The translations under genes and the position numbers were made by a program. From Glycomyces harbinensis (GTDB taxonomy: Bacteria > Actinomycetota > Actinomycetes > Mycobacteriales > Micromonosporaceae), in assembly GCF_900101745.1 (NCBI RefSeq), contig NZ_FNAD01000005.1:1-64000 (forward strand): DNA of 64,000 bases. The letters run 5' to 3'. The notes below the pieces were generated by a model. It did no database searches. It was not told where the DNA came from and was given only the letters and a program-made list of their open reading frames with translations. Shown one piece after another: positions 6,133 through 19,328 of this stretch (the first letter of the stretch is position 1; each line of letters opens with the position of its first letter).

Positions 6133-6200
6133 GCACCGATCATCAACAACCAGGTCGCGAAATGCAAACTCAGGCGCCTGTTAGTGCAGTCAACGGTGCC
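6129..6200. repeat. element right end, shared with 17,641-17,712
   Basis: This 72-bp block matches 17,641-17,712 without gaps at roughly 85% identity. Both copies begin CCACGCACCGATC and both end at the alanine codon of an HNH gene. To the left the two loci diverge: here it runs into the TnpA-like start, there into a TnpB-like fragment. I interpret it as the recombinase-recognised end of the element. Confidence 0.7.
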
Positions 6201-6620
6201 GTGGTCGCGCCGACGGTTGATGAGGACTGCAAGGTCACCGGCGGCAGGTGGTACTCCTACTACGACGACACCTATGTCGACAGCGCCCGAGCGATCGACA
6301 TCGACCACATGGTCCCTCTGGCCGAGGCCTGGGATTCTGGCGCGCGCGACTGGGACAGTGCCAGGCGGGAGTCCTACGCCAACGACCTCGGCGCGGATGC
6401 CCCGCTGATCGCGGTCACCGCGAAGGCGAACCGGTCGAAGTCCGACCAGGACCCGGCCGAGTGGATGCCGCCGAACGCCAGTGCCGCATGCCGATACGCG
6501 TACGAGTGGGTCAGCGTGAAGACTCGCTGGGATCTCACGGTCGACCAGGACGAAGCTGATGCGCTGAGGGCGATCGTCGCCGATTGCCCCGACGCGATCG
6601 TCGACATCGAAACGCCCTAA
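6198..6620 (+). pseudogene. 3' half of the interrupted secreted HNH endonuclease gene
   Basis: This fragment continues the family sequence lost at 1145: VVAPTV, CKVTGGRWYSYYDD, the HNH core IDIDHMVPLAEAWDSGA, YANDL and KSDQDPAEWMPP. It ends at a TAA followed directly by a strong terminator. All catalytic-domain residues are present, but the signal peptide and first third are on the other side of the element. A short ORF from 6162 extends into element sequence and has no ribosome site, so translation is doubtful. Precise excision of 1146-6197 would restore an open reading frame of about 227 codons. Such nucleases are secreted and presumably degrade extracellular DNA. That role is inferred from the family. 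Confidence 0.85.
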
Positions 6621-6741: not shown

Positions 6742-8238
6742 GTGATCTCAGCGAGACTGTTTCTCATGAAGGAGGAGCAGGGCGCAGCGTGGCCGCGCTG
6801 GCGCCGATGGATCGGTGCCGGGGCCGGGTTCGTCGCTGCCTGCGGTGTGCTCGTGTTCGCGGTGCTGCTACCCCCCGCATGGGGCGACCCCCTCGCCCGC
6901 ACCGAAGCGATCAAGACCGCATGGACCGTCACCGGAGGTATCGCCACGCTGGTGGGCAGCACCCTGTTCATTTTCAAGCTGCGCCTGGACCGCGAAGTCC
7001 ATGACCACCAGGTCGAGAAGGACGTCTTCGACCAGCTCGACAAAGCCATCGCGCAGCTCGACGGCGACACCTCCGCCTCCCAGACCACCGGGCTGCGCGC
7101 GCTCGACCGACTCGGCACCGCCCACCCCGAACTGCGCGAACAGGTCGCCGAAACCTGGTGCAACTTCCTGCGCAGCCCTCTCGCCGACCCGGATGGGCAC
7201 CACGACGCCCGTGCACTCGCGCAGCGCCTGCTCCTGGACCACCTGCGCGTCCCTTACGAGTCGGGGCCGCCCTCCGCACACGTGCGAGTACCCGAGGACG
7301 CTGACCACTACTGGGACCTGCGTCGCCTCGACCTCCGCACGGCCGTCCTGATCGATGCGGACTTCACCGACTGCCTCCTGCCGGCCTTCGACGCCCAAGC
7401 GGCGGTCTTCCACGGCCACACCCGGTTCACCAGGGCCCGGTTCCTCGGCTCGGCAACCTTCGCCCGCGCCGACGTCAAAGGACCGCTCGACTGCTCGGAC
7501 ACCTTCTTCGCCGCCGAATGCAACCTGGACCGCCTCACGGCCGCAGGCGCCGCCGACTTCACCCGCGCGAACTTCCGCGGCCCGCTCGAGTGCCAGTCCG
7601 CCGACTTCAGCGACGCTGCCAGTTTCACGTCCGCGCTCTTCGAGGCCCCGGTGCGCTTCTGGCAGAGCCGGTTCGCCGGCACCGCCGACTTCTCCGGTGC
7701 AACCTGGATCTTCGAGGCCGGATTCACCCTGGCCGTCTTCGAAGGCTTCGCCGGATTCGCGAAGACCCGGTTCCTGCGCCGGGCCGTGTTCGGACGAGCA
7801 ACGTTCGGCGGCCAGGCCTCCTTCGAAAGCGTCCAGTTCGGTCACAGAGCGACCTTTACCGGGGTGACATTCTGCGATGCTGCGCTCTTCGCCGACGGCT
7901 ACTTCGATCAGGACGTCGCCTTCGACGACGCCGCGTTCGGGTCCATCGCCCGATTCCGCGAAGCGCAGTTCCACGGGCAGGTCACCTGCTGCGGCGCACG
8001 CTTCGAAGCACTGCTGAGCTTCCAAGGCGCCCAGTTCAAAGACCGGGCCGACTTCTCCATGACCGTGCTGACCGGGGACGCGGTAGTCGACTGCACCGAC
8101 GCCACAGCCACCGTGGGCGAGTTCGCGCCATCGGACCGCATCTGGCCCCGCGGCTGGACCGCCCTCCGCCACCGGAGCGAGCTGCGCCTCGTCCCTATCC
8201 CGGACATGTCTATCGAGTTCCAGATCCCACCGAACTAG
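6742..8238 (+). CDS. membrane-anchored pentapeptide-repeat protein
   Basis: A 498-residue protein. Two hydrophobic segments (about residues 24-49 and 60-80) place it in the membrane. A charged helical linker follows (VHDHQVEKDVFDQL...). From about residue 190 to 440 runs a pentapeptide-repeat region with A(D/R/T)F-type units every five residues (for example ADFTD, ARFLG, ATFAR, ANFRG), which would form a right-handed beta helix. The GTG at 6742 sits eight bases after a TACCGT -10-like box, so a leaderless start is plausible. An ATG at 6766 is an alternative. It follows the HNH gene on the same strand. A C-terminal fragment of a second copy lies at 12,993-13,232, again beside an HNH gene. The function is unknown. 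Cytoplasmic exposure of the helix is likely but not shown. Confidence 0.85.
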   Translation: MISARLFLMKEEQGAAWPRWRRWIGAGAGFVAACGVLVFAVLLPPAWGDPLARTEAIKTAWTVTGGIATLVGSTLFIFKLRLDREVHDHQVEKDVFDQLDKAIAQLDGDTSASQTTGLRALDRLGTAHPELREQVAETWCNFLRSPLADPDGHHDARALAQRLLLDHLRVPYESGPPSAHVRVPEDADHYWDLRRLDLRTAVLIDADFTDCLLPAFDAQAAVFHGHTRFTRARFLGSATFARADVKGPLDCSDTFFAAECNLDRLTAAGAADFTRANFRGPLECQSADFSDAASFTSALFEAPVRFWQSRFAGTADFSGATWIFEAGFTLAVFEGFAGFAKTRFLRRAVFGRATFGGQASFESVQFGHRATFTGVTFCDAALFADGYFDQDVAFDDAAFGSIARFREAQFHGQVTCCGARFEALLSFQGAQFKDRADFSMTVLTGDAVVDCTDATATVGEFAPSDRIWPRGWTALRHRSELRLVPIPDMSIEFQIPPN

Positions 8239-8539: not shown

Positions 8540-8620
8540 GTGTTTACGCGGGCCATTCCCGACCAGGAATGGGACGCGCTGTTCGCGGGTCTGCACTGCG
8601 ACCGGGACCGGGCGCTGAGG
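8540..8620 (+). pseudogene. fragment of a TnpA-like tyrosine recombinase
   Basis: The frame reads FTRAIPDQEWDALFAGLH and then CDRDRALRA, matching LRAIPDDHWSELFAQMR and then CNRDRALLA of the intact recombinase at 4915-6132, just before its box I. Only about 27 codons remain. It abuts a truncated secreted-peptide gene on the other strand, so a deletion joined the two. Confidence 0.65.
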
Positions 8621-8664
8621 GCGCCGCCGATCAGTGCGAGTGCGGTCATCCGCTTGCGTCGCAT
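8614..8664 (-). pseudogene. relic of a small secreted-peptide gene
   Basis: The first 16 codons (MRRKRMTALALIGGAL) are nearly identical to the signal peptide of the intact gene at 9120-9266, with a GGAGG ribosome site at the same distance. Coding similarity then ends at the recombinase fragment. The upstream three-repeat SARP-like site (8736-8761) is still present. Confidence 0.7.
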
Positions 8665-8735: not shown

Positions 8736-8761
8736 GCACGGATGCTGCAGGGCCCCGGCAC
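8736..8761 (-). promoter_or_regulatory. SARP-like direct-repeat site before the relic peptide gene
   Basis: Read on the minus strand: GTGC, CTGC and GTGC at 11-bp steps, with ATCC before the last. The middle repeat is degenerate, and the -10 position does not fit well, in keeping with a decaying gene. Confidence 0.5.
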
Positions 8762-9119
8762 GCCGTGGAGGACCTGTCTGCAGCCCGGCCGCATTCCCCC
8801 GGGGTGGGGACGTGCTGGCGAGGCGGCAACCGCGCCCGCTGGCGCCCTGCTCGCGGTTCGCGGCGTGACCGACGCCGACACCGTGCCCCCCTCTTTGGAA
8901 CCCTCCCCCGGTCGGCCGCGGCAGGGACGTGCAAGCCGGCCCGCGAGCGGCCCGTCCGGGCTGGTTGTTCCCCGGGCCCGGTGGCGGTGCCTGGCCTGCG
9001 GTGCTGTCCCGTCGACGGGGGACGCCGATGCCCCCGGCCCACAGGTTGCGTCCGTGGTCCGAGGGCATCCCGGTCCCGCCCGCCGGCAATGCAGTGCCCG
9101 AGGCAGGCCATTGCCTTGA
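8762..9119. other. stretch without a recognisable gene
   Basis: GC-rich sequence between the relic and the next small peptide gene. No ORF here has a family resemblance, a good start or a signal peptide. It probably holds further decayed material. Confidence 0.45.
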
Positions 9120-9266
9120 TCAGCCGCTGCCCCTGGGCCAGGGCTCTTCCCCGTTGGTGGTGTAGCCGGCGGGTGCGGCGGTGTGGGCGCTGGCGGGTGC
9201 GGCCGCGAGGGCGGCCAGCAGGGCGCCGCCGATCAGCGCGAGCGCAGTGATCCGCTTCAATCGCAT
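9120..9266 (-). CDS. small secreted peptide (48 aa precursor)
   Basis: The ATG at 9266 is preceded by GGAGG six bases upstream. The precursor has a lysine/arginine start (MRLKRITALAL), a hydrophobic core and an alanine-rich cleavage region (AAAPASA), leaving a mature peptide of only about 21 residues (HTAAPAGYTTNGEEPWPRG plus two). There is no cysteine. A relic of a paralogue lies at 8614-8664. Upstream is a well-formed SARP-like repeat site (9341-9366) with CACGCT at the fixed distance. I do not recognise the peptide. A signal or antimicrobial role is speculation. Confidence 0.6.
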   Translation of the reverse strand: MRLKRITALALIGGALLAALAAAPASAHTAAPAGYTTNGEEPWPRGSG

Positions 9267-9324
9267 GGAAACCTCCATTCCTGATGCTTGGAACTCATGT
9301 CGCCAGTGCTGGCGACCTACGGCG

Positions 9325-9366
9325 AGCGTGACGCCGGGCTGCACGAATCCTGCACGGATTCGGCAC
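9325..9366 (-). promoter_or_regulatory. SARP-like site and -10 for the peptide at 9120-9266
   Basis: On the minus strand, GTGC repeats begin at 9366, 9355 and 9344, exactly 11 bp apart, with AATCC and GATTC between them. Ten bases after the last GTGC comes CACGCT (9330-9325). The same geometry precedes five other secreted-protein genes here. Confidence 0.65.
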
Positions 9367-9750
9367 GGGCACCGAGACCGATGCGCATGAGGAAGCGGCA
9401 CCGCGCCGCCGCACTCACGGCTATGACGCGTTCGAGCACCAGATGCGCGAAGCAGGTGTCCGCCCGCGGGGCCACCGCAGCTATCCACAGGCCTGGAGGT
9501 TCTTCAGGGTCTCGGGCGTTTTCAGGGGTAGAACGGAGGGATGGACATCGACTTGCTCTCTCACCCTGGGAACAAGCGACTCACCCACAGTCGCTATTGC
9601 CGCACTGGTAGCTGACGTGTTGCCCGCCTCCGCAGGCGGGCCGTGCTCCTGCTCGCTCTGGCCGCACTCGTCACCGCACGCATGCCTTGGCGCCGAACGC
9701 CTCAGGCAGCCAGCACCGGCCGTGCTGAGGCCGAGGAGCGCTGATGTCGG
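9367..9750. other. intergenic stretch; contains a hairpin at 9622-9641
   Basis: No gene recognised. GCCCGCCT-CCGC-AGGCGGGC (9622-9641) forms an 8-bp stem with a tetraloop about 110 bp past the regulator stop and could terminate its transcript. Confidence 0.45.
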
Positions 9751-11904
9751 CTAGAACTCGGCCCACAGGTCGATCGGCCAGATCTGCAACCTGCCGTTGT
9801 ACCTGATCACCACGGCGTAGTCGTCGATGAACTCCAGTGAACCAGAGAGGCAGATCGAGTCGCCTGAGTGGAAGTCGTAGCTGATGAGGCCGCCGCAGTC
9901 CGCGTCGATCGCCGACTCGTCCATCACCCAGAGCGTCGAGCCGTGCGCCCACATCTGCTCACCATCGTGAGCAGACCAGAGTTTCTCGTGCGTTTCCATG
10001 CTCCATATGTCGATGCCGCCCGACCTCTCGTCACCGGTCACCACCAGGTCGCCATGGACGAGAAGGGCTGAGGAGGGTTCCGGGGCGCTCCATCGGATCT
10101 CGCCGCTCGGTATCCAGAGCAGGGCAGCTGTCTGCCCGATCGTGGCAGGGTAGTGGTAGCCCGAACCTTGCAGCGAGGGGAACGGCCGGCACTGTTCGAT
10201 GTTCTTCGGCGTCGTCACTGCTTGGCTCCATTGCCGCACGCCTGTATCGAGCCGGTAGGTCTCGATGGTCGCCTCGCAGCGGTCGTCGGCGATGACGGTG
10301 GTCTGCTTCCGGACCATGAGGTAGTCGCCGTTGACCTGGTAGTCCTCGACATCGGTGTAGTCGAAATCGCTCAGCACCGCACCGGAGCCGATATCGAATG
10401 CGACCAGTCTGGGCCTCGCGTCGCCCGCGGTGCCGAAATCCGCACGGACCAGCAGGTAATCGGTCGGGAGGTTCTGCCTCCAGGGATTGTCGTAGCGGTC
10501 CGAGGGCTTCGCCGGCAACACCTGGAAGTCGAGTTCGACCTGCCAGCGCACTGACCTTTTCGTTGGTCGAACGGACGTCATTGTGCAGGTCGCCGCTTCA
10601 CCGCTGTCCTTGCAGCCGACGGTGATGACCGTGTTGTCGACGATCCCCATCAGCCATTGGTTTTCGGCTCGCCAGAGCTCGACTCCCGTGTTGAGGTCGA
10701 TGCCCATGACCGTGCCGGTGCTCGGTGACCGGTCGCCGGGGTCGTTGAAGGAGAGAATGATCGTCTCGCCTGCGAGTGCTGCGTCCGGTATCGATTGGAA
10801 ATCGAGGCGCTTCGCCCAGATCTCCACATTCTGTGATTCAAGGCGGAGGCTGCCCTGGTCGAGAATGAGGGCGCTGGCGCCGAACAGTTTTATTGACGCC
10901 TCGCCCTCGAGCGTCGGGTAGCTCAAGTCCGAGTTGCCGGGGTCGCGGATCCAATCGATCGCAGTGGGCTCGCTTGGCTTCTCCATCGGTTCAAGGCGGC
11001 CGGTGCCGTCGCTTGCGGTCGCCCATGCGATGAGCAGCACCGCTATTGTCAGGGCCAGTCTGCGAGCCCTGTGGGGCCGAGCTGGTCTCGGCGGTTCGTC
11101 GTTGCCGGTCTCGGTCGGCGCGGTCAGGCTGGCAGCCGTGAGAGGTTCGACCTCCTCCGGCGGCGGCGTGGCTTTTTTCAGGTCGAGGCTCGGGTCTTCG
11201 CGGAGGATGGCGACGTATAGGTCTCGCAGCTGGCGGTCCGGTTCGATGCCGAGTTCTTCGCCCAATCGGGCGCCGAGATCGTTGTAGGCCTGGAGTGCCC
11301 TCGCGCTGTTGCCTGACCGGTAGAACGCGAGCATCAACTGGCCGGCCAGGCGGCGCCGGTACGGGTGCTCGGCGGCGAGCGCCCCGACCTCACCCAGGAT
11401 CTCCTGGTGCAGGCCCAGGGCGATTGCCGTCTCGTAGTAGTCCTCGCAGGCGGCCAGGCGCTGCTCCTCCATACGCACGAGGGCCGGGCCGATCAGCGCG
11501 CAGTCGAGTCCGGCCAGGACCGGTCCCCGCCACCGCTGGAGCGCCTGGTGCAGGAGGCGGTGCGCCACCGCATCTGCGCCGGCGGCCTCGGCCTTGGCGA
11601 CCTCGGCGCGGAAGTCGTGCCAGTCGGTCGCTTCCGTAGTAAGCCGGTAGCCGTCTCCGGAGCGCTCGATCGGGTCGTCCTCGGCCAGGCTCCGCCGCAG
11701 GGCCGCGACGATGTTGCGTACTTGGCGCCGGGCCGTGGCCGGAGGCTCACCCTCCCAGAGTGCCTCGATGAGCCGCTGCACCGACACCGTGCGGCCTGCG
11801 TCGAGCAGCAGGATCGCCAGTGCTTTGCGCTGGTGCGCGCCGCGGATGGGCACCTCGCTGCCCTCGTGTCGTACTTCGAGGGCACCCAGGATGTGAAACT
11901 CCAC
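9751..11904 (-). CDS. SARP-family regulator with transmembrane segment and PQQ-like propeller
   Basis: The 717-residue protein starts at the GTG at 11,904, where GAAGGG lies six bases upstream and VEFHILGALEVRHEG is the usual SARP opening. Residues 1-90 are an OmpR-type winged helix. About 95-240 is the bacterial transcriptional activator (BTAD) helical repeat, ending in the typical LGEELGIEPDRQLRDLY. A hydrophobic segment, RRLALTIAVLLIAWATA, near 280-300 follows basic residues, so the DNA-binding part should be cytoplasmic. The remaining ~410 residues have the TGxxxWxx signatures of PQQ-like beta-propeller blades (TGVELWRAEN, TGVRQWSQA, HEKLWSAHD) and should lie outside. This suggests a one-piece sensor-activator. 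Six nearby secreted-protein genes carry SARP-like direct repeats and are its likely targets. Confidence 0.88.
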   Translation of the reverse strand: MEFHILGALEVRHEGSEVPIRGAHQRKALAILLLDAGRTVSVQRLIEALWEGEPPATARRQVRNIVAALRRSLAEDDPIERSGDGYRLTTEATDWHDFRAEVAKAEAAGADAVAHRLLHQALQRWRGPVLAGLDCALIGPALVRMEEQRLAACEDYYETAIALGLHQEILGEVGALAAEHPYRRRLAGQLMLAFYRSGNSARALQAYNDLGARLGEELGIEPDRQLRDLYVAILREDPSLDLKKATPPPEEVEPLTAASLTAPTETGNDEPPRPARPHRARRLALTIAVLLIAWATASDGTGRLEPMEKPSEPTAIDWIRDPGNSDLSYPTLEGEASIKLFGASALILDQGSLRLESQNVEIWAKRLDFQSIPDAALAGETIILSFNDPGDRSPSTGTVMGIDLNTGVELWRAENQWLMGIVDNTVITVGCKDSGEAATCTMTSVRPTKRSVRWQVELDFQVLPAKPSDRYDNPWRQNLPTDYLLVRADFGTAGDARPRLVAFDIGSGAVLSDFDYTDVEDYQVNGDYLMVRKQTTVIADDRCEATIETYRLDTGVRQWSQAVTTPKNIEQCRPFPSLQGSGYHYPATIGQTAALLWIPSGEIRWSAPEPSSALLVHGDLVVTGDERSGGIDIWSMETHEKLWSAHDGEQMWAHGSTLWVMDESAIDADCGGLISYDFHSGDSICLSGSLEFIDDYAVVIRYNGRLQIWPIDLWAEF

Positions 11905-12180
11905 AGTGATCCCTTCGAAGGATTGGGGCGCAACGGTTTCTGATGCCAGGGTATCGAAGGTCGCGCGCATGGAGGTCCCGCGCGTTCGGGACCCGACCGA
12001 TGATCGGGGTTTTTCGCAAGGTGGCGGCCAGGGCGGGTTCGATGCAGCGAAGGAGCCTCGGCGTCACATCCGCACCGAAGGGGAGCACTCCGTGCGCTGC
12101 AAGGTCGGCGGTGAGGCTCCACCGGCCAGTGGGCAACCAAGGAGGGCCGCTGACTGCACTAGCTCGGAAGAAGGAGCGCC
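11905..12180. other. intergenic region between the SARP gene and the first plus-strand target
   Basis: It holds the SARP gene's 5' region, but I could not place a convincing promoter for it. No ORF is supported. Confidence 0.4.
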
Positions 12181-12222
12181 GTGCATGATCCGTGCACCAT
12201 CCGTGCAAGCGCACGAGAGGCT
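12181..12222 (+). promoter_or_regulatory. SARP-like site and -10 for the gene at 12,367
   Basis: GTGC at 12,181, 12,192 and 12,203 (11-bp steps), with ATCC between, then ten bases and GAGGCT (12,217-12,222). This is the only copy on the plus strand, and the following gene is on the plus strand, so orientation tracks the gene. Confidence 0.6.
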
Positions 12223-12366
12223 TTGGCGCAGCGAGGCTCACGCGCTGAGCGGGCAAGGTCGCGACATCGAGGCGGCCCCACTCCAGTGCGAACCCGCTGC
12301 AAGCCAGACAGCCAGACTGGTGAAGTGCGCCCCTGGCTGGACACCGATCGTCATCTCGGAGGATGC

Positions 12367-12828
12367 ATGAGACCAACCGCAATATCCAGAATTCTGCGCC
12401 GCGCGCTCGCACTCGCTGCGGTGCTGACCCTCGCCGCCGGTTTCACCGGCCTGATGAGCTCGCCCGCCCAAGCCGCCGCATGGCTGTGCCACTCCGGGTT
12501 CAGGGACGACAACGGCGACGCGAACAGCCGCGACATCGATGCCGTCTGCTACACCGCGGGAAGCACCGACGACAACGAGGTCTACGCCGACTTCCGCGCA
12601 CTGGGCGAGCACTTCATCGTCTGCGACCACTTCCCCAACGGGCACGCCACATTCGCCCAACTGACCGTCGAGGGCAACGGCACCGCAACGTTCTACACCG
12701 CCGGAGGCGGCGATCCCTGCGACGACTTCAACCTGAGCTACAGCGAGGGCCTGTCGGTAAGCCTCAAGGTCTGCACCTCCGACACCGCCGGAGCGACCTG
12801 CACCCGCGCCACCGGCGGCATCACCTGA
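12367..12828 (+). CDS. secreted cysteine-containing small protein
   Basis: A 153-residue precursor. The ATG at 12,367 follows GGAGGA. A signal peptide with arginine start and an AQA cleavage region ends near residue 37. The mature part has six cysteines (in LCHSGF, AVCYTAG, FIVCDHF, GDPCDDF, KVCTS, ATCTR), suggesting disulfides outside the cell. The centre, VCDHFPNGHATFAQLTVEG, resembles VCDTEPDGHHASAAV in the protein at 14,337-14,810 and VYDTLADG at 15,452-15,916, so these are diverged members of one secreted beta-rich family. Its promoter carries the SARP-like repeats. A longer upstream frame exists but lacks a ribosome site. The function is unknown. Confidence 0.8.
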   Translation: MRPTAISRILRRALALAAVLTLAAGFTGLMSSPAQAAAWLCHSGFRDDNGDANSRDIDAVCYTAGSTDDNEVYADFRALGEHFIVCDHFPNGHATFAQLTVEGNGTATFYTAGGGDPCDDFNLSYSEGLSVSLKVCTSDTAGATCTRATGGIT

Positions 12829-12992
12829 TCAGCGCCGCCCGCTGGAGTAACCCTTATGCAGCGGGCTGCTCCAGCACCGCAGCCACGGTGCTTCCTGCTC
12901 GGATCGCAGCACATCCAGATCCCGGACTGTCATGCCTCGGCAAACCCTGCTGCCCCGCAGCACTATCTCGTCCCACTATTCGCATGCGCAGA

Positions 12993-13232
12993 CGGTTCGA
13001 AGCCCTGCTGAGCTTCCAGGGCGCCCAGTTCAAGGACCGGGCCGACTTCTCCATGACCCTGCTGACCAGGAACGCGGTAGTGGACTGCACCGACGCGACG
13101 GCCACCATCGACGAGTTCACCCCTTCGCAACGCATCTGGCCCCGGGGCTGGACCGCGCTCGACCACCGGAACGAACTGCGCCTGGTCCCCATCCCCGACC
13201 CGTCGCTGGAGTTCCACGACCCACCGGAATAG
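12993..13232 (+). pseudogene. C-terminal fragment of a pentapeptide-repeat protein
   Basis: The 79 codons from RRFEALLSFQGAQFKDRADF to the stop match the last 80 residues of the intact protein at 6742-8238 closely (for example RIWPRGWTAL and ELRLVPIPD). Nothing upstream encodes the membrane segments or most repeats, and there is no start signal. It faces an HNH pseudogene, echoing the HNH/pentapeptide neighbourhood near 6.6 kb. Confidence 0.85.
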
Positions 13233-13524
13233 ACGGTGCCCCCACCGGCGGGTGCCGCATCGCAGGCGACGACAGCGAAAGCGCGCGAGAATCTGGGGCG
13301 CCGTTCGAAGGACGGTGAGACGTGGGAGTTCGCGTGAGCAACCGTCCGGGCCCGAGCGGGCCCGTTCCGATAGGTCAAGGCCAGCACCCGACCGGCCAGC
13401 GACCACGGGCCCGAATGCGGACAGAACAGCGGCAATGGCAGCGGTCCCCCGTGTCCCGGGTACGTGCCTCATCGAGGCACCGCACCGCGGGCTCGGGCCG
13501 CTCTGTCCGCTCCCGGCGCACCGG
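13233..13524. other. intergenic; hairpin at 13,464-13,480
   Basis: No gene supported. GTGCCTC-ATC-GAGGCAC (13,464-13,480) is a short perfect hairpin near the 3' end of the minus-strand HNH pseudogene and may have been its terminator. Confidence 0.4.
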
Positions 13525-14066
13525 TCAGGGGGCAGCGGCGGTGACGACCGCGTCAGGGCAGGCGGCCACGATCGCTTCCAGCGCATCAGCTTCGACCTGG
13601 TCGACCGACAGGCCCCACCGCGTTTTCATGCTGACCCACTCGTAGACATACCGGCACGCCGCGCTCGCGGAGGGCGGCATCCATTCGGCGGGGTCCTGAT
13701 CGGCTTTCGACCGGTTGGATCGGGCGGTGACCGCGATCAGCGCGACCCCCTCGCCCAGGTCGTTCGCATACGCCTCCCGCCGGCCGGGGTCCCAGCCGCG
13801 GGCCCCCGAGTCCCACGCCTCGGCCAGAGGCACCATGTGGTCGATGTCCAACCCGCGAGGACCCTCGACGTTCACCTCGTCGTAGTAGGAGAACCAGCGC
13901 CCGCCGGTGATCTTGCAGTCGCGAGCGCTTCAGCGAGGGTCGGGCCGTCGGTGGGGGTGGGCGCGGCGTGGGCGATGCCCGGAGCAGCAAGGCCCACGGC
14001 GAGCACGGCCACGGCGATGAAACCGAGGGTTCGAGTGCGTAGCTTGGGCAGGCGGTGGTCGATCAC
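13525..14066 (-). pseudogene. secreted HNH endonuclease gene with internal deletion and frameshift
   Basis: The GTG at 14,066 has the same GAGGAG-N-GTG start as the copy at 888, then a signal peptide and GPTLAEALA. At about 13,920 the reading frame changes: codons for roughly 50 residues (the DLFxHWID to APTV part) are missing and the HNH part continues in another frame from CKITGGRWFSYYDE through IDIDHMVPLAEAWDSGA to the stop. One junction explains both the loss and the frameshift. The missing segment includes the codon where the recombinase element sits in the other copies, so imprecise loss of such an element is a possible cause, though unproven. No functional product is expected. Confidence 0.85.
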
Positions 14067-14130
14067 GGCACTCCTCGATGTGGTGCGGCAACGGCGGGCC
14101 GCTCCCGCGCGGGCCGCCGGTTCGGCACCG

Positions 14131-14159
14131 ACCCTAGCCGGATCAGCTCCACTATGTAC
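14131..14159 (-). promoter_or_regulatory. conserved HNH-gene promoter, second copy
   Basis: On the minus strand GTACAT, 17 bp, TAGGGT, then a GC hairpin and the GTG start. It matches the promoter at 795-823. Confidence 0.6.
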
Positions 14160-14336
14160 ACCATTCCGAGCTAGGAACCCCTCGCTCGCCCCAGGCCCGG
14201 CCGCGCGCGAGTCAGTCCCGAATCCGTTGAGATTGCACGGAACAACACGGGCGCAGGCGGTGCCGTGGGCCAGCACCGCACTCGCCCAACTCAACGCCTG
14301 ATGCCGGGCCCGGCCGAACCCAGCACCAGGGTTGGA

Positions 14337-14810
14337 TCACTCCATGACGACATCTTCTTTCTTAAAGCCGGGGCAGCCGCCATTGAGCGCCCCGTCGCGG
14401 GCGCTGACCCACCCGCTGTAGGTCGGGTAGATATATTGAATAGCGTTGCCTTCCACGATCATCGCGGCGTAGCAGATGTGGCTGTCCTCGGGCATGTTGA
14501 AGTCCCTGGTCCTGCACGTGAGGTAGCCGCCGTAGGCGCCGACCTCGAACCAGTGGTCGTCGGCCGAGCCGCGCACGGCGGCTGAGGCGTGGTGACCGTC
14601 CGGTTCGGTGTCGCAGACCTTCAACAACTCATCCTCGGGCTCAAAGCAGACCCATGCGCCCTCGATCCTCCATTCAGTGGCCGTCAAGCCGACGCAGTTG
14701 CCGTACTCGGCCTGCGCAGGGGCGGCGACCAGACCGGAGAGGCCGATGCCGGCCATGACCGCCAGCAGCAGCGCCGCGAGGCGGGTTCGGGTCGCTTTCC
14801 TCGATGTCAT
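14337..14810 (-). CDS. secreted cysteine-containing small protein
   Basis: A 157-residue precursor. The ATG at 14,810 follows AAGGAGG. The signal peptide (MTSRKATRTRLAALLLAV... to APAQA) is about 34 residues. The mature part has six cysteines and the motif VCDTEPDGHHASAAV, shared in pattern with the protein at 12,367-12,828. A C-terminal GGCPGFKKEDVVME tail is polar. The promoter has three 11-bp-spaced GTGC repeats and CACGCT at the standard distance. It is monocistronic. It is probably folded with disulfides and acts outside the cell, but the role is unknown. Confidence 0.8.
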   Translation of the reverse strand: MTSRKATRTRLAALLLAVMAGIGLSGLVAAPAQAEYGNCVGLTATEWRIEGAWVCFEPEDELLKVCDTEPDGHHASAAVRGSADDHWFEVGAYGGYLTCRTRDFNMPEDSHICYAAMIVEGNAIQYIYPTYSGWVSARDGALNGGCPGFKKEDVVME

Positions 14811-14838
14811 ACGTCCTCCTTGGAGTTGATCTGGAAGG

Positions 14839-14880
14839 AGCGTGCGCCGCTGTTGCACGGAAACTGCACGGCCGCTGCAC
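14839..14880 (-). promoter_or_regulatory. SARP-like site and -10 for the gene at 14,337-14,810
   Basis: Minus strand: GTGC at 14,880, 14,869 and 14,858, with GCGGCC and TTTCC between, then ten bases and CACGCT (14,844-14,839). Confidence 0.65.
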
Positions 14881-15161
14881 GAGCAGCTACATTGATAGGC
14901 CCGGCATCCGGGATGCCTTGTCCATGAAGGTTGGTTTCGAGCCCAAGCTCAGACGTCTCTTGCGGCCGTCTGGCAGGGGCGGGGAGGTGTTCTTGGTGGC
15001 CATCCGCCTGGCGCCGCCGCTCAAGCGGGATGCGGGGCCGGGCATTGGCATAGATCGCCCGATCCGGCAGTCTCGAACGGTCGGGCGGGGTACTGCCTCG
15101 GCTGAGATTCATGGACGTGGATGCGCCCTGCGCAGGCGCCGCGCGATCAGGACGTGCAGGG
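14881..15161. other. intergenic stretch, nothing recognised
   Basis: Open frames exist on both strands but have mixed third-position composition and no domain, signal peptide or ribosome site. Confidence 0.4.
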
Positions 15162-15320
15162 TCACGCGACGATGAGCTGCAGCGCCAACGGCGGCATGAA
15201 GAAGATGCCGGTGATGGCCATGATCGCGAGCCCGCACGGAATCATGGCGACATACGGAATGAAGATCCAGCTGTCGGAGTGGCGCGCGAACCGCTGGTCG
15301 CCACTCTTGGGCATCACCAC
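15162..15320 (-). CDS. putative small membrane protein
   Basis: About 52 codons from a GTG (or 50 from the ATG at 15,314). GC at third codon positions is very high, as in real genes here. The product has a polar start (MPKSGDQRFARHSDS) and a long hydrophobic stretch from WIFIPYVAMIP to the end, enough for one or two membrane passes. GAGGAG lies 14 bases before the GTG, rather far. I do not recognise it, and it may be a fragment of a larger membrane protein. Confidence 0.35.
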   Translation of the reverse strand: MVMPKSGDQRFARHSDSWIFIPYVAMIPCGLAIMAITGIFFMPPLALQLIVA

Positions 15321-15382
15321 AATGTTGTACGTGGCGCTCCTCGCAATCGGTGAGTATGGCGGGGTCGGCACACGTGACACCG

Positions 15383-15432
15383 GGAGTCTCCAGCTAGTTT
15401 GCCGTGTTGCTGCAGAACTAGCTGGAGACTCC
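15383..15432 (-). terminator. 17-bp perfect hairpin after the secreted-protein gene
   Basis: Arms 15,383-15,399 and 15,416-15,432 (GGAGTCTCCAGCTAGTT and its complement) with a 16-nt loop, 20 bp past the stop at 15,452. No T-run. It could also serve as a protein-binding inverted repeat. Confidence 0.6.
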
Positions 15433-15451
15433 ATCAATTCCCAATCACCGT

Positions 15452-15916
15452 TTAGGCGACACCCTGGCGCCCGATTCTGGTCCCGTTGGAGGCATACATG
15501 TCGACGAGGATGTACCGTCCTTCGGGGAAGTCGAGGTTGTAGGGGCTCGCGCCGTTGGCGGCGTATGTTGTTCCATTCACCGTGACGTTAATGACGATGC
15601 CGTCGGCGAGCGTGTCGTAGACGTACAGGAATTCGCCCTGGGGATGGAACTCGACCTTGCCCGCCAGGCGGGAGTATTCGTTGAACATCCAGAGCTTCAC
15701 GGCGTATCCGCCTGCGTCGTGCTCGAAGTACGTCCCATCCCAACTGTCGGGGAGGGAGCAAGGGCAGGAGTCGGTGTCATAGACGGCGCCCTCGGCGGTG
15801 TAGGAGGCCACGGTTACGTCGCCGGGGTCGGCTGCGGCGGTCGAGCCAGCGAGTGAACCGGTGAGCGCGAATGCCGCGACGATCGCCGCGAGCATGGCAC
15901 AGATCCGTGTACGCAT
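15452..15916 (-). CDS. secreted small protein
   Basis: A 154-residue precursor. The ATG at 15,916 follows GAAGGG. The signal peptide (MRTRICAMLAAIVAAFAL...) ends near STAAA. The mature part begins ADPGDVTVASYTAEG, has two cysteines in SCPCS, and contains FLYVYDTLADGIVINVTVNG, whose hydrophobic-x-D-xxADG pattern parallels the VCDxxPDGH motif of its neighbours. It looks like an all-beta extracellular domain. Three SARP-like repeats lie about 70 bp upstream. The gene is followed by a 17-bp hairpin. The function is unknown. Confidence 0.75.
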   Translation of the reverse strand: MRTRICAMLAAIVAAFALTGSLAGSTAAADPGDVTVASYTAEGAVYDTDSCPCSLPDSWDGTYFEHDAGGYAVKLWMFNEYSRLAGKVEFHPQGEFLYVYDTLADGIVINVTVNGTTYAANGASPYNLDFPEGRYILVDMYASNGTRIGRQGVA

Positions 15917-15969
15917 CGAATTGCCCTTCAGGAGGTAGTGGGACGTGCGGTCGCAGCATCCATCGCACC

Positions 15970-16011
15970 ACCGTGAACCGAAGCCGCACGAATTCTGCAC
16001 GGAAACTGCAT
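15970..16011 (-). promoter_or_regulatory. SARP-like site and -10 for the gene at 15,452-15,916
   Basis: Minus strand: ATGC, GTGC and GTGC at 11-bp steps (16,011, 16,000 and 15,989), with TTTCC and AATTC between, then ten bases and CACGGT (15,975-15,970). Confidence 0.6.
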
Positions 16012-16146
16012 CGCACTCGCCGGAGTCGACAAATGTGCGTGACCGTGCGGCGGTCCGGCTCGACTGGAGCCATCCCCCGACGCCTCCGCCGCAGGGGACG
16101 GATGCAGTAGTCGGGTGGGGCTTACACCTTTGGTGTTGACACCGTT

Positions 16147-17037
16147 CTATGCGGCGAGGGCGAGGCTAGCCTGCTGCTGTTCGTAGTCGATCGGTGAGAT
16201 CTGGCCCAGAGACGAGTGTCTCCGGACGGTGTTGTAGTTGGTGATCCAGGCTTCGACCTGGAAGCGGGCCTCCAACGCGTTCGCAAAGGTCCGGCGTCCT
16301 TGCAGGACTTCGCGTTTGAGCGTGGCGTTGAACGCCTCCGCGAGGGCGTTGTCGGCGGAGGAGCCGACCCGCGCCCGGGACTGGAGCACACCGAGTTCCT
16401 TGCAGCACTTGGCGAACTGAGCGGATACGTATTGCGAGCCGCGGTCGGTATGCATCAGGGATCCAGCAAGGCCGCCGCGGATGAAGTGCGCGCGGCGCAG
16501 CGCCTGCTCGACCAGGCCGGTCCGCATGTGATCAGCGATCGCCCACCCGGTCAAACGGCGGCTGAACAGGTCGATGACCGTGGCCAGGTAGAGAAACGAG
16601 CCGTCCGCGATCGGCAGGTAAGTGATGTCGCCGACGTAGCGCGTGTTCGGCTCCGGCGAGGTGAAGTCGCGGCCGAGCCGGTCGGGTACGGCGGCCGCGT
16701 CGGCGTCCTCGGGCGGCGGGGCCGGGCGTCGACGCATGAGCCGGACGCCCTCGATCCCGGCGACGCGCATCAAGCGGGCCACGCGTTTGCGGTTGACCTG
16801 CTCGCCGGCCTCGCGCAGGTCGACGGTGATTCGGGGCGACCCGTAAGTGCCCTTGCTGGCCAGATGGGCGGCCTTGATCCGCGCGGTCGCCGCCTTGTCC
16901 GAGGCGGCCTTCGCCGCCCGAGCCGGGGCGCGGTCCCTCCACTGGTAGTAGCCCTGCCGGGAGACCCCGAGCGTCTCGCACAGCCGCTTCACGGTGAACT
17001 CGTGGCGGTACTCGTCAACGAACTGGAAGCGGCTCAC
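16147..17037 (-). CDS. IS3-family transposase OrfB (DDE domain)
   Basis: About 296 residues from the GTG at 17,037. The same frame runs back past 17,064 for fusion to OrfA by -1 frameshift. An HTH_21 region (RLCETLGVSRQGYYQW) is followed by the rve integrase core with all three acidic residues: D in YVGDITYLP, D in LMHTDRGSQY and E in NALAEAFNATLKRE. The C-terminal WITNYNTVRRHSSLG is typical. It catalyses cut and transfer of the element ends as the OrfAB fusion. There is no internal stop or other sign of decay. Confidence 0.9.
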   Translation of the reverse strand: MSRFQFVDEYRHEFTVKRLCETLGVSRQGYYQWRDRAPARAAKAASDKAATARIKAAHLASKGTYGSPRITVDLREAGEQVNRKRVARLMRVAGIEGVRLMRRRPAPPPEDADAAAVPDRLGRDFTSPEPNTRYVGDITYLPIADGSFLYLATVIDLFSRRLTGWAIADHMRTGLVEQALRRAHFIRGGLAGSLMHTDRGSQYVSAQFAKCCKELGVLQSRARVGSSADNALAEAFNATLKREVLQGRRTFANALEARFQVEAWITNYNTVRRHSSLGQISPIDYEQQQASLALAA

Positions 17038-17372
17038 CAGTTCGTCTCGCCCGCGAAAAACTTCGCGGCCTTGCGCAGGATGTCGCGTTCCTGGCGCAGC
17101 CGCTCGTTCTCGGCACGGAGCTTGCGGTTCTCTTCGGCGATCACGGCGTCGTACCCTACGAGGCCTTCGTTCTCGCTGGTCGGCGCCTGGTAGCGGGGTG
17201 ATTCGCCTTGCTTCTTGCGGTGCTGTTTCACCCAATTGCGCAGCGTCTCGGACGAGACGCCCAGATTCTTCGCGACCGCCGTGTAGGTGGTCGCGGGGTC
17301 ATCGAGGTACATCCGGACCGCTTCGGCCTTGAACTCCTCGGGAAAACAGCGCTGAAACTTCGAGGTAGACAC
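17034..17372 (-). CDS. IS3-family transposase OrfA
   Basis: The 112-residue protein starts at the GTG at 17,372, with AAGGAG upstream. It has an HTH of the transposase-8 type (EEFKAEAVRMYLDDPATTYT, then VAKNLGVSSETLRNWVKQH) and a leucine-zipper-like tail (AEENRKLRAENERLRQERD) that mediates oligomerisation in this family. The stop overlaps orfB. A run of five T's (GTTTTTC on the coding strand, 17,061-17,055) near the end is the likely -1 frameshift site producing OrfAB. Confidence 0.9.
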   Translation of the reverse strand: MSTSKFQRCFPEEFKAEAVRMYLDDPATTYTAVAKNLGVSSETLRNWVKQHRKKQGESPRYQAPTSENEGLVGYDAVIAEENRKLRAENERLRQERDILRKAAKFFAGETNW

Positions 17373-17442
17373 TCTCACTCCTTGCACCCCGAACCCTACC
17401 GGCCCAGAGCATCAGGGTGTCAACACCAAGGAATCAAGCCCC

Positions 17443-17640
17443 GAACAACTCAGCCGACATAGGGACCACCCGCTCGAGGTCGGTCTTGGACGGACTGATG
17501 ACCAGCAGGGCCACCACTTCGCCGTTCGGCCGCCGATAGTTGCGGACGCTTAAGTGAGTCGTCAGCTTGACGAGCTCTTCACAGCGGACGCCCGACAGCC
17601 GAAGTGTCTCGATGAGGGCCCACCGCCTGAAGGCCAGGTT
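17443..17640 (-). pseudogene. internal fragment of a TnpB-like tyrosine recombinase
   Basis: Matches 3243-3440 of the intact gene, from LAFRRWALIETLRLSGVRCE through ISPSKTD to VPMSAELF, with one extra codon after ELVKL. It is cut on the left by the IS3 element. On the right it is joined directly to the element end at 17,641, so the N-terminal two thirds and the whole TnpA-like gene are gone. Confidence 0.85.
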
Positions 17641-17712
17641 CCACGCACCGATCCTCAACAACCAGGCCGCGAAATGCAACCTCAGGCCCCTCTGGGTGCA
17701 GTCAACAGAGCC
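17641..17712. repeat. second copy of the recombinase-element right end
   Basis: Gap-free match to 6129-6200 (about 85%). It ends at the alanine codon (17,710-17,712) of another HNH gene, the same codon as at 6198. Confidence 0.7.
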
Positions 17713-18102
17713 GTCACCGCACCTGCGGTCGTTGCCGAGCGGTGCACCGTCACCGGTGGCCGCTGGTACTCCTACTTCGACTACATCTACGTCGATGGTC
17801 CCCGCGGGCTGGACATCGACCACCTTGTCCCTTTGGCCGAGGCCTGGGATTCCGGTGCCCGGGAATGGGACCCGAAGCGCCGGGAGGCGTACGCGAACGA
17901 CCTCGGCGACAGCACCTCCTTGATCGCGGTCACCACCCGCTCGAACTGCTCCAAGTCCGAGCAGGACCCCGCCGAATGGATGCCGCCCTCTGGGAGCGCC
18001 GCATGCAGGTACACCTGTGAGTGGACCAGCGTGAAAACCCGCTGGGGCCTGGCGGTCGACCAGGCCGAGCTCGAGGTACTGGACGCGATCGTGGCAGACT
18101 GA
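17710..18102 (+). pseudogene. 3' part of a third secreted HNH endonuclease gene
   Basis: It encodes AVTAPAV, CTVTGGRWYSYFDY, IDHLVPLAEAWDSGA, YANDLGD and PAEWMPPSGSAACRYTC to the stop, that is, everything downstream of the element insertion codon. The signal peptide and first third are missing. Its start is replaced by element-end sequence and a recombinase fragment. A GC hairpin (near 18,142-18,169) follows, as after the other copy. This is an independent target gene for the same element family, because the HNH coding sequences differ at many positions. Confidence 0.85.
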
Positions 18103-18339
18103 CCGACTGCGACGGTCACCATCGCGCCGGCCTGACGAGAGGACGGGCCCGCGCAAGCGGGGCCCGTCACTGAATCCAGGTGAACAAGACGCTCGATTCG
18201 ATGCCTGTCCCAACGTCAGATATCACCGGTCGCACTCGGTGAGGGCGGCGGTCCTTTAGTGGTCCGGGCATTCCCGCGTCGGCATCAAGAGTCAGTTGGC
18301 GAGTCCGGCCTTCGCGGTCGGTGGCGCGGGTGCGAGGTA

Positions 18340-18389
18340 AAGCCTCCTCCCGGCAGCGGCTGCAAGATCACAGCGCCGGGAGGAGGCTT
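18340..18389. terminator. bidirectional hairpin between convergent genes
   Basis: Perfect 15-bp arms (AAGCCTCCTCCCGGC, 18,340-18,354, and its complement, 18,375-18,389) around a 20-nt loop, between the plus-strand HNH remnant and the minus-strand peptide gene. Confidence 0.7.
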
Positions 18390-18404
18390 CACCTTGGGTC
18401 GGGC

Positions 18405-18557
18405 CTACGGGAAGGGGCACTTCTCGGGCGGGCAGTCCTCGGCGGGGCGGTAGTCGTCCGCGACCACTGCCGCCGAGGCCGCGGCGGCCCCGGTGCCGGA
18501 GAGGACGAGGCCGAGGAGCACCGCGGCCATCAGCTTGCGCATCTTGTCGATCTTCAC
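18405..18557 (-). CDS. small secreted peptide (50 aa precursor)
   Basis: The GTG at 18,557 has GGAGA seven bases upstream. The ATG at 18,542 is possible but lacks one. The signal peptide (MRKLMAAVLLGLVLSG... to ASA) leaves a mature peptide of about 21 residues, VVADDYRPAEDCPPEKCPFP, acidic and proline-rich with two cysteines that could form one disulfide. The SARP-like site is at 18,625-18,650. I do not recognise it. Size and composition suit a secreted effector or signal, but that is a guess. Confidence 0.6.
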   Translation of the reverse strand: MKIDKMRKLMAAVLLGLVLSGTGAAAASAAVVADDYRPAEDCPPEKCPFP

Positions 18558-18608
18558 TTCAGGTCTCCGTTCTAGGGATTCGCTGGGCGGTGGGCCCGGC
18601 TTTCTGTC

Positions 18609-18650
18609 ATGTTCCGGCCTACCGGCACGGATGCTGCACGGATTCGGCAT
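18609..18650 (-). promoter_or_regulatory. SARP-like site and -10 for the peptide at 18,405
   Basis: Minus strand: ATGC, GTGC and GTGC at 11-bp steps (18,650, 18,639 and 18,628), with AATCC and CATCC between. Ten bases on is GAACAT (18,614-18,609). Confidence 0.6.
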
Positions 18651-18658
18651 GCGACTGG

Positions 18659-19069
18659 CTAACACTCACCGCCCCAGAACGATTCGGTCTTGACATTGGT
18701 GGCCGTGCCGAAGGTGAAGGTGGCCGGGCCAGTGTTGGTGGAGCCGTCGTAGTAGTGGAGGCACGCCTTGCCGTTGGTGCCGTAGCGGAGGTGGACGTGG
18801 TCCGAGCCGGTCTGCTGGTTTCCGTTGTTGAAGACGGACTTGACCCCGTTGACCGCGGGGATGTCGCCAGCGGTGGTGTAGAAGGGGTTGCTCGAGGTGA
18901 CGGCGCCTTTGTAGAAGCAGACGTGCCCGGAAGGGCATCCGTACGTGGCCGGTCCGGCTTGCGCCGGAGCGGCGGCCAAGCCCGACACACCGATCGCTGA
19001 GACGAGTGCCAGCAACAGAGCCGCGATGCGGGTCCGGCGCCGGTCTCGGACGGGATGGTTCGAATTCAT
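18659..19069 (-). CDS. secreted peptidase-inhibitor-like protein (I36 type)
   Basis: A 136-residue precursor. The ATG at 19,069 follows AAGGAGG. The signal peptide (MNSNHPVRDRRRTRIAALLL... to PAQA) is about 38 residues. The mature part, starting GPATYGCPSGHVCFYKG and containing VKSVFNNGNQ and ACLHYY, has the C-x-SG-x-x-C-x-Y start and SxxNNG segment of the I36 inhibitor-like family of streptomycete secreted proteins. Four cysteines could form two disulfides. The best-formed SARP-like site lies about 25-65 bp upstream. Protease inhibition is a family-level inference. The stop of a small upstream ORF overlaps this start (ATGA). Confidence 0.75.
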   Translation of the reverse strand: MNSNHPVRDRRRTRIAALLLALVSAIGVSGLAAAPAQAGPATYGCPSGHVCFYKGAVTSSNPFYTTAGDIPAVNGVKSVFNNGNQQTGSDHVHLRYGTNGKACLHYYDGSTNTGPATFTFGTATNVKTESFWGGEC

Positions 19070-19272
19070 GCATCCTCCTTGGATTCTGGAGCGAGCATGC
19101 GGTGCCCCGGCACGGATGCTGCACGGATTCGGCACGAACCCCGTAGCCCAGAGGGGGCCTCATCGCCGGGGGGCTCGGTTTGGGCTGCGGCGACGAGGAG
19201 ATCGGCGAGCGCTTGGAGGTTGAGTCGCGCTCGTCGTTCTCCGAAGACGCGGATGTGTTGCTCGTTGGTCAT
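19066..19272 (-). CDS. hypothetical small protein, possibly overlapping the next promoter
   Basis: A 68-codon ORF starting MTNEQHIRVFGERRARLNLQ with coding-like third positions in its first ~45 codons. The rest runs through the SARP-like site of the next gene, and its TGA overlaps that gene's ATG. Either the true gene is a truncated remnant of a longer protein, or the two are translationally coupled. No family recognised. Confidence 0.35.
   Translation of the reverse strand: MTNEQHIRVFGERRARLNLQALADLLVAAAQTEPPGDEAPSGLRGSCRIRAASVPGHRMLAPESKEDA
19094..19135 (-). promoter_or_regulatory. SARP-like site and -10 for the gene at 18,659-19,069
   Basis: Minus strand: three GTGC repeats at exactly 11 bp (19,135, 19,124 and 19,113), with AATCC and CATCC between, then ten bases and CATGCT (19,099-19,094). 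Confidence 0.7.
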
Positions 19273-19283
19273 GAGGCGATCTT

Positions 19284-19328
19284 GGCACTTGAGGCACTTG
19301 AGGCACTTGAGGCACTTGAGGCACTTGG
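19284..19328. repeat. five tandem copies of a 9-bp unit
   Basis: GGCACTTGA repeated from 19,284, the last copy ending GG. It lies between the two-HTH protein gene and the next ORF. Iteron-like spacing suggests a protein-binding array, but simple slippage is equally possible. Confidence 0.7.

What the first reader, a model, noticed from the sequence alone, without database searches (positions are those of the whole stretch)
8736..19135. A local SARP regulon: six secreted-protein genes and one relic share an 11-bp-phased triple repeat
Upstream of the genes at 9120, 12,367, 14,337, 15,452, 18,405 and 18,659, and the relic at 8614, lie three GTGC-type repeats (consensus GTGCNGNATCC) at exactly 11-bp steps. 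In the six intact cases a NANNNT hexamer (CACGCT twice, CATGCT, CACGGT, GAGGCT, GAACAT) follows ten bases after the last GTGC. Sites are on the strand of the gene they precede. Established: SARP/BTAD activators bind direct heptamer repeats with 11-bp phasing a fixed distance before the -10. The only SARP in the window (9751-11,904) sits among them. All targets encode signal peptides. I infer one regulon of extracellular small proteins, not a classical antibiotic cluster.
Basis: partly seen in the sequence, partly recalled or inferred. Interest (0 to 1): 0.87.

Follow-up and report, generated by a model that had tools for sequence, protein, structure and literature searches.

The report
SARP operators switching on secreted proteins
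A soil actinobacterium carries a set of near-identical control switches, of the type normally used to turn on antibiotic genes, in front of genes for small secreted proteins, and the likely activator beside them looks anchored in the membrane with an outside-facing sensor domain.

Summary
Six intact sites (plus one decayed) of RTGC-N7-GTGC-N7-RTGC-N10-NANNNT lie in the window; 100 shuffles give none. The genome has nine: six here, three elsewhere. Eight of nine targets look Sec-secreted, against 17 of 120 other genes. A stricter pattern hits 6 of 22 genus genomes and 0 of 178 others. A site lies within 3 kb of all nine SARPs in the window SARP's DNA-binding group, but of 3 of 59 others. Framed as CGTGCNG heptamers, the sites fit the published SARP rule. 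Amendments: the regulon is not purely local, and a second SARP of that group (NB-ARC/TPR type, contig C26) also adjoins a site. The window SARP and one orthologue lack NB-ARC/TPR; the window protein has a probable transmembrane helix and a BamB/PQQ-like propeller instead. Known operator grammar; new sequence, target class and sensor architecture. Binding is not shown.

The parts
9751..11904 (-). SARP (717 aa from the GTG at 11904): OmpR-type wHTH + BTAD (1-240), basic linker, probable short TM helix (283-297), C-terminal BamB/PQQ-like beta-propeller with six Cys
   Evidence: Pfam BTAD 1e-32, Trans_reg_C 6e-7, PQQ_2 3e-5 but below its cut-off; hydropathy 2.34 over 15 residues but 1.56 over 19; propeller model pLDDT 80, pTM 0.78, Foldseek tetrathionate hydrolase/BamB E about 1e-12
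9325..9366 (-). SARP-type operator and -10 (CACGCT) of gene 9120
12181..12222 (+). SARP-type operator and -10 (GAGGCT) of gene 12367; divergent from the SARP, 211 bp from the end of its longest reading frame (11970)
14839..14880 (-). SARP-type operator and -10 (CACGCT) of gene 14337
15970..16011 (-). SARP-type operator and -10 (CACGGT) of gene 15452; first repeat ATGC
18609..18650 (-). SARP-type operator and -10 (GAACAT) of gene 18405; first repeat ATGC
19094..19135 (-). SARP-type operator and -10 (CATGCT) of gene 18659
8736..8761 (-). decayed operator (middle repeat CTGC, no NANNNT at 10 nt) before the relic at 8614
8614..8664 (-). relic: start of a reading frame resembling the signal peptide of gene 9120
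   Evidence: read by eye
9120..9266 (-). 48-aa secreted peptide
   Evidence: ORF and signal-peptide-like start; no Pfam/NCBIfam hit
12367..12828 (+). 153-aa secreted protein, paralogue on contig C15 also behind a site
14337..14810 (-). 157-aa secreted protein, 40% identical to the C26 target over 134 query residues
15452..15916 (-). 154-aa secreted protein, related to the C26 target and to a G065 target
18405..18542 (-). 45-aa secreted peptide
18659..19069 (-). 136-aa secreted protein, weakly like peptidase inhibitor family I36
   Evidence: Pfam PF03995 E 9e-4, 19.6 bits, below cut-off 21.1

Best explanation
The sites are SARP operators: three direct heptamers (CGTGCNG when so framed) one helical turn apart, the last ending 8 bp before a weak -10 and standing in for the -35. 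A SARP of the window SARP's DNA-binding group binds them side by side on one DNA face and recruits RNA polymerase (mechanism inferred from the published AfsR complex), switching on a scattered regulon of small exported proteins. In this genome two SARPs of that group are candidates: the C26 protein (cytoplasmic NB-ARC/TPR type) and the window protein, which probably sits in the membrane with its DNA-binding half inside and a propeller outside, so that an extracytoplasmic signal could be read directly. Shown here: the motif, its register, its targets, its link to the SARP group, the propeller fold by prediction. Inferred: binding, activation, topology, signal, and sharing of operators by both SARPs.
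For: Register: NANNNT at exactly 10 nt in 9 of 9 own sites and 19 of 27 sites from other genomes chosen by the repeat alone; next best of 40 gaps 4 of 27. Specificity: 0 hits in 178 genomes outside the genus, control 0. Group link: 9 of 9 SARPs of the window's group have a site within 3 kb versus 3 of 59 others; 12 SARPs at gap 10, at most 1 at any other gap from 6 to 16; label changes 4 versus 11.2 shuffled, 0 of 500. Conserved arrangement: the only full-length orthologue found in 22 genus genomes (G073, 49%) also has a site 138 bp away, divergent, before a gene with a signal-peptide-like start; the C26-type SARP in G062 has a downstream site and a target 67% identical to the C26 target. Targets secreted 8 of 9 vs 17 of 120. 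AfsR base contacts T88 and R92 align to N64 and A68, while R94 and K95 align to R70 and R71, fitting a changed sequence on an unchanged scaffold. A basic stretch precedes the TM segment; the orthologue keeps a TM-like segment and the six propeller Cys; propeller relatives in G066, G071, G079 and G065 are proteins with an N-terminal hydrophobic segment and no SARP domain in the frames I read.
Against: No binding or expression data. 8 of 27 foreign sites lack NANNNT at the gap: one is a shifted reading of a good site, three are near-identical sequences in three genomes, perhaps coding. G065 and G074 hold good sites but none of the SARPs I examined there (5 and 4) falls in the group; these were part of the 11 and 8 SARP hits of those genomes. 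Three motif-linked SARPs (L227, L231, L239) lie outside the group. The group's own branch (94/93) is just under the tool's mark of 95/80. With the stricter three-way labels of an earlier tree, the strongly linked SARPs alone were not clearly clustered (7 changes versus 8.4, 59 of 500 shuffles as low). The TM helix is short and below the usual 19-residue threshold, and Pfam finds no PQQ_2 in the orthologue. The C20 target fails the signal-peptide test. Not all targets elsewhere are Sec proteins: some look like membrane proteins, one is EspC-like and one precedes a YcaO gene.
Confidence: 0.8

Rival explanations
1. The sites are SARP operators, but the working regulator is the C26 NB-ARC/TPR SARP (or another SARP) and not the window SARP.
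For: The C26 SARP is the closest paralogue, 57% identical over 253 residues, and a site lies 19 bp past its reading frame, before a secreted target; a like order is kept in G062.
Against: G073 has the window-type SARP as the only group member of the two SARPs examined there and still has three sites, one 138 bp from it; six sites surround the window SARP.
Confidence: 0.25
2. The repeats are bound by an OmpR-family response regulator (PhoP/PhoB-like), which also uses 11-bp direct repeats in front of a -10 (recalled).
For: Geometry alone would fit; the AfsR box of afsS is also recognised by PhoP in Streptomyces (PMC10972967, passages).
Against: Sites track one SARP group (9 of 9 vs 3 of 59) and often lie in the region next to the SARP start. 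I did not search for response regulators.
Confidence: 0.07
3. Local clustering is mostly duplication: one promoter was copied around and the sites need not be functional.
For: The stretch has large repeats, a relic copy, and one pair of genes sharing promoter-leader DNA.
Against: Fixed positions are kept while the intervening bases differ, also across species; most leader pairs score within the null range; sites occur on other contigs.
Confidence: 0.05

Closest known systems
SARP operators of Streptomyces (AfsR/afsS, DnrI, ActII-ORF4)
   Same: Direct repeats at 11-bp steps, 3' repeat 8 bp from the -10, sometimes three repeats (PMC10936776 and PMC10972967, passages seen)
   Different: Sequence CGTGCNG; own-genome targets are secreted proteins, not antibiotic genes; AfsR base-contact residues T88/R92 replaced
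Large SARPs of AfsR type (wHTH-BTAD-NB-ARC-TPR)
   Same: N-terminal domains align to AfsR 8hvr/8k60 at E about 3e-31; the C26 SARP has BTAD, NB-ARC and TPR, as have four of five scanned relatives; the fifth, L225, has BTAD and TPR with NB-ARC below cut-off
   Different: Window SARP has no NB-ARC/TPR match but a probable TM helix and a propeller
EmbR (wHTH-BTAD-FHA)
   Same: Best solved-structure match of the N-terminal half, 2fez, E 2e-33
   Different: EmbR ends in an FHA domain (PMC10936776 passage)
CadC/ToxR-type membrane transcription factors (recalled)
   Same: Cytoplasmic OmpR-type DNA-binding domain, single TM helix, outside sensor domain, by prediction
   Different: DNA-binding half is a SARP with BTAD; sensor is a BamB/PQQ-like propeller; topology untested
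Peptidase inhibitor family I36 (PF03995)
   Same: Gene 18659 matches weakly
   Different: Below the curated cut-off; function untested

Membership tests
SARP regulators | N-terminal OmpR-type winged helix followed by BTAD | tested here: met
   PF00486 29.8 bits (cut-off 26.2) and PF03704 114 bits (cut-off 22.1); AfsR and EmbR structures align
SARP regulators | Binds direct repeats at 11-bp steps with the 3' repeat 8 bp from the -10 | tested here: inconclusive
   The DNA pattern is met if the heptamer is framed CGTGCNG; the framing is mine and the G of the third heptamer is weak (14 of 28); protein binding is not testable here
SARP regulators | Activates an antibiotic or other secondary-metabolite cluster | tested here: not met
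   Own-genome targets are small proteins, 8 of 9 secreted-looking. One site in another genome precedes a YcaO gene. This is usual rather than strictly defining
AfsR-type large SARP | NB-ARC (STAND) and TPR domains after BTAD | tested here: not met
   Window SARP has no such match; the C26 SARP has
CadC/ToxR-like membrane regulator (works like) | Single TM helix between DNA-binding and outside domain | tested here: inconclusive
   15-residue hydrophobic stretch after a basic segment, with a like segment in the G073 orthologue; short
CadC/ToxR-like membrane regulator (works like) | Sensor domain outside the cytoplasm | tested here: inconclusive
   Six Cys in the propeller, three invariant in seven propellers; four SARP-free relatives look N-terminally anchored by my reading
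BamB/PQQ-type propeller | Multi-bladed propeller with BamB-like repeats | tested here: met
   AlphaFold pLDDT 80.2; Foldseek tetrathionate hydrolase and BamB, prob 1.00, but TM about 0.4; Pfam PQQ_2 below cut-off and absent in the orthologue

The most novel reading that the evidence does not exclude
A membrane-tethered SARP reads an extracytoplasmic signal through a propeller and shares one operator code with a cytoplasmic NB-ARC/TPR SARP, so that two sensors, one outside and one inside, feed the same regulon of exported small proteins; genes join the regulon by acquiring a promoter-plus-signal-peptide cassette (seen in one pair, 14337/18659, where leader DNA is homologous but mature proteins are not).
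Probability: 0.35. Interest if true: 0.78.

Novelty: new variant of a known kind. Interest (0 to 1): 0.6.

Why it matters
SARPs are studied as antibiotic switches. Here the same switch grammar, with a new repeat sequence, stands before exported small proteins in many genomes of one genus, giving a search matrix precise enough to list regulons from sequence (0 hits in 178 genomes outside the genus). The link between a DNA-binding group and one operator sequence, with changed base-contact positions, makes the SARP recognition code testable. A SARP with an outside sensor would add a direct signal input not named among the SARP size classes in the passages I read.

Tried and rejected
A scan of genome contigs (one genome for each of 84,980 species) for the repeat gave 104 stretches, many of them 11-bp tandem arrays; 12 loci have NANNNT at the gap, and of these only L157 (Glycomyces terrestris) also shows a SARP in the stretch; L117 and L162 are the other Glycomyces hits. 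I therefore dropped the idea of a general actinobacterial motif. One search (60 family genomes besides own, two of them of the genus) gave 4 hits outside own, two overlapping; none has NANNNT at the gap (L164 read by hand on the other strand).

A full-length structure of the window SARP with three sequences failed (pLDDT 39); the propeller alone with seven sequences worked. No NCBIfam family passed its cut-off among the ten proteins scanned. A search of the genus with the mature 18659 protein found only itself at E <= 0.001, with candidates capped, although pairwise scoring links it to a G062 target (z 17.7). In one search the start of the second G062 target was set wrongly by me, so its mature-protein scores are void and its leader scores are off; they are not used. 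Hits in G063 (2) and G079 (5) are identical copies of one sequence each and were not taken as operators; no check of their surroundings was made. The label counts two sites (L241, L248) that fall inside the SARP frame as drawn from its first start codon, and misses L222, whose last repeat is GTAC but which has a site 87 bp away.

Paper searches on SARP with Glycomyces, secreted proteins, I36, type VII secretion, LysM, propeller or CadC/ToxR listed nothing that by title or abstract start treats this system (listings only; PMC10936776, PMC10972967 and PMC12692060: passages).

Full report
Check of the observation. The window is contig C17, bases 1-64,000, of a 6.17-Mb genome. The three-repeat pattern is present at all seven stated places. 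Six sites match RTGC-N7-GTGC-N7-RTGC-N10-NANNNT without a mismatch; 100 dinucleotide shuffles of the window give none. The seventh, before the relic, has an altered middle repeat and no hexamer at that gap.

The whole genome. GTGCNGNNTYC twice plus GTGC with up to one mismatch gives eight sites: five in the window and one each on C15, C20 and C26; the 12181 site is at two mismatches. With the RTGC pattern the genome has 10 hits against 2 for the reversed control; nine are the sites discussed, the tenth (C20:302877) does not fit the longer consensus. The C15 target is a paralogue of gene 12367 and the C26 target is related to gene 14337. Eight of nine targets pass a crude signal-peptide test of mine, against 17 of 120 genes called crudely from the window and 16 other stretches of this genome, none of them a window target (Fisher p 6e-6). 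The exception is the doubtful 49-aa frame at C20.

Other genomes. In the 21 other genus genomes, up to two mismatches give 27 sites. These were picked without regard to the -10, yet 19 of 27 have NANNNT at a gap of exactly 10; the next best of 40 gaps has 4. The expectation per gap is about 0.6 from the window's base composition. The RTGC pattern with the hexamer gives 53 hits in the 22 genomes against 2 for the control, but seven of the 53 are identical copies of two sequences. A stricter pattern that includes the flanking C and the inner G gives 15 sites in 6 of 22 genus genomes and none in 178 other genomes of the family, with no control hit.

Operator grammar. Over the 28 sites that have the hexamer (9 own, 19 others), C precedes GTGC in 25, 28 and 27 cases for the three repeats, and G follows at the second position in 23, 24 and 14. 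Framed as CGTGCNG, this is a heptamer with 4-nt spacers; the third heptamer ends 8 bp before the hexamer. The published rule is direct repeats 11 or 22 bp apart with the 3' repeat 8 bp from the -10 (PMC10936776, passages), and three-repeat sites are known for DnrI and ActII-ORF4 among others (PMC10972967, passages). The framing is my choice and was made knowing the rule; the sites themselves were not picked by it.

Which regulator. I took 68 SARP genes: 20 from this genome and 48 from stretches fetched because of a motif or because of similarity to SARP or to a target. Twelve have a site within 3 kb at gap 10; at gaps 6-9 and 11-16 the count is 0 or, once (gap 7), 1. In a tree of the DNA-binding halves, the nine rows of the window SARP's group (support 94/93) all have a site; of the 59 others three do. 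The label needs 4 changes against a shuffled mean of 11.2, and no shuffle of 500 was as low. An earlier tree of 49 rows, with sites graded strong, weak or none, gave 5 changes against 10.1 for the SARPs without a site (0 of 500 as low), but 7 against 8.4 for the nine strongly linked ones taken alone (59 of 500). Part of the sample was chosen by motif, so the fraction of SARPs with sites is not a genus-wide rate, but clustering on the tree does not depend on that choice. AfsR's base-contact residues T88 and R92 align with N64 and A68 of the window SARP, while R94 and K95 align with arginines.

Two candidate regulators. In this genome the group has two members: the window SARP and one on C26 (57% identical over the first 253 residues), which has NB-ARC and TPR regions. 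The C26 gene has a site and a secreted target just downstream, and G062 keeps this order. G073 has a 49% full-length orthologue of the window SARP, with a site 138 bp away before a gene with a signal-peptide-like start. Targets that look I36-like to me sit behind sites in G062, which has the C26-type SARP, and in G073, which has the window type. I infer that both read the same operators.

Sensor part. Of five scanned relatives, four pass the NB-ARC cut-off and all five have TPR. The window SARP has instead, after a basic stretch, a hydrophobic segment at 283-297 and then a domain with weak PQQ_2 similarity; Pfam shows no PQQ_2 in the orthologue. In 300 family genomes this C-terminal part has relatives in eight others, six of them in the genus; four genus relatives that I read (G066, G071, G079, G065) are proteins with an N-terminal hydrophobic segment and no SARP domain in the frames I read. 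Aligned with the orthologue, these four and one further relative, the propeller was predicted with pLDDT 80 and pTM 0.78, and Foldseek's best matches are tetrathionate hydrolase and BamB, at modest TM-scores near 0.4. All six cysteines after the linker lie in this part and the orthologue keeps them. The simplest reading is DNA-binding half inside and propeller outside, but the helix is short.

Targets. Genes 12367, 14337 and 15452 and the C15, C26, G062 and G065 targets can be aligned around a shared FxPxGExLxVxDTxADG-like stretch; pairwise scores join 14337, 15452 and C26, while 12367 scores only with C15. A G049 protein 41% identical to the C26 target also has a site, 28 nt before its start codon. 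Other targets include I36-like proteins, very short peptides, apparent membrane proteins beside SARPs, an EspC-like type VII secretion protein (PF10824, 42.3 bits) and a YcaO protein behind a possible precursor peptide. The common thread, as I read it, is export. One pair, 14337 and 18659, shares promoter-to-signal-peptide DNA (leader score 54 against maxima of 36 and 30 among 50 other leaders), while the mature proteins are unrelated by score (z -0.4).

Results against. Eight of 27 foreign sites lack the hexamer; G065 and G074 have sites without a group SARP among those examined; three site-linked SARPs lie outside the group; no experiment supports binding. Verdict: very probably a genuine SARP-type regulon of exported proteins, canonical in grammar, unusual in sequence, targets and in one of its two likely sensors.

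Noticed in passing
window 14337-14880 and 18659-19135: Promoter, 5' leader and signal-peptide DNA are homologous, ending near the predicted cleavage site, while the mature proteins are unrelated by score: a possible promoter-plus-signal-peptide cassette exchange.
   Followed up: partly
window 6162-6620, 13525-13875, 17554-18102: Three diverged copies of a GmrSD_C/HNH-type nuclease domain (PF07510), one inverted, scattered through the same stretch.
   Followed up: partly
window 16147-17387: IS3-type transposase pair on the - strand between the targets (rve, HTH_Tnp_1).
   Followed up: no
window 6742-8238 and 12992-13234: A pentapeptide-repeat protein and a second, 85% identical copy of its last 243 bp next to gene 12367.
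   Followed up: no
window 19281-19325: A run of the 9-base unit gaggcactt, which probably explains the exact hits at step 9 in the spacing control.
   Followed up: no
L237:5995-7610: In G077 a site precedes a 40-odd-residue Cys-rich peptide frame and a YcaO gene: a possible RiPP cluster under the same operator type.
   Followed up: partly
L227:7842-8273, L233:6008-6375, L236:8059-8480: Sites precede an EspC-like type VII secretion protein (L227, PF10824) and two small proteins without a Pfam hit that resemble each other by eye.
   Followed up: partly
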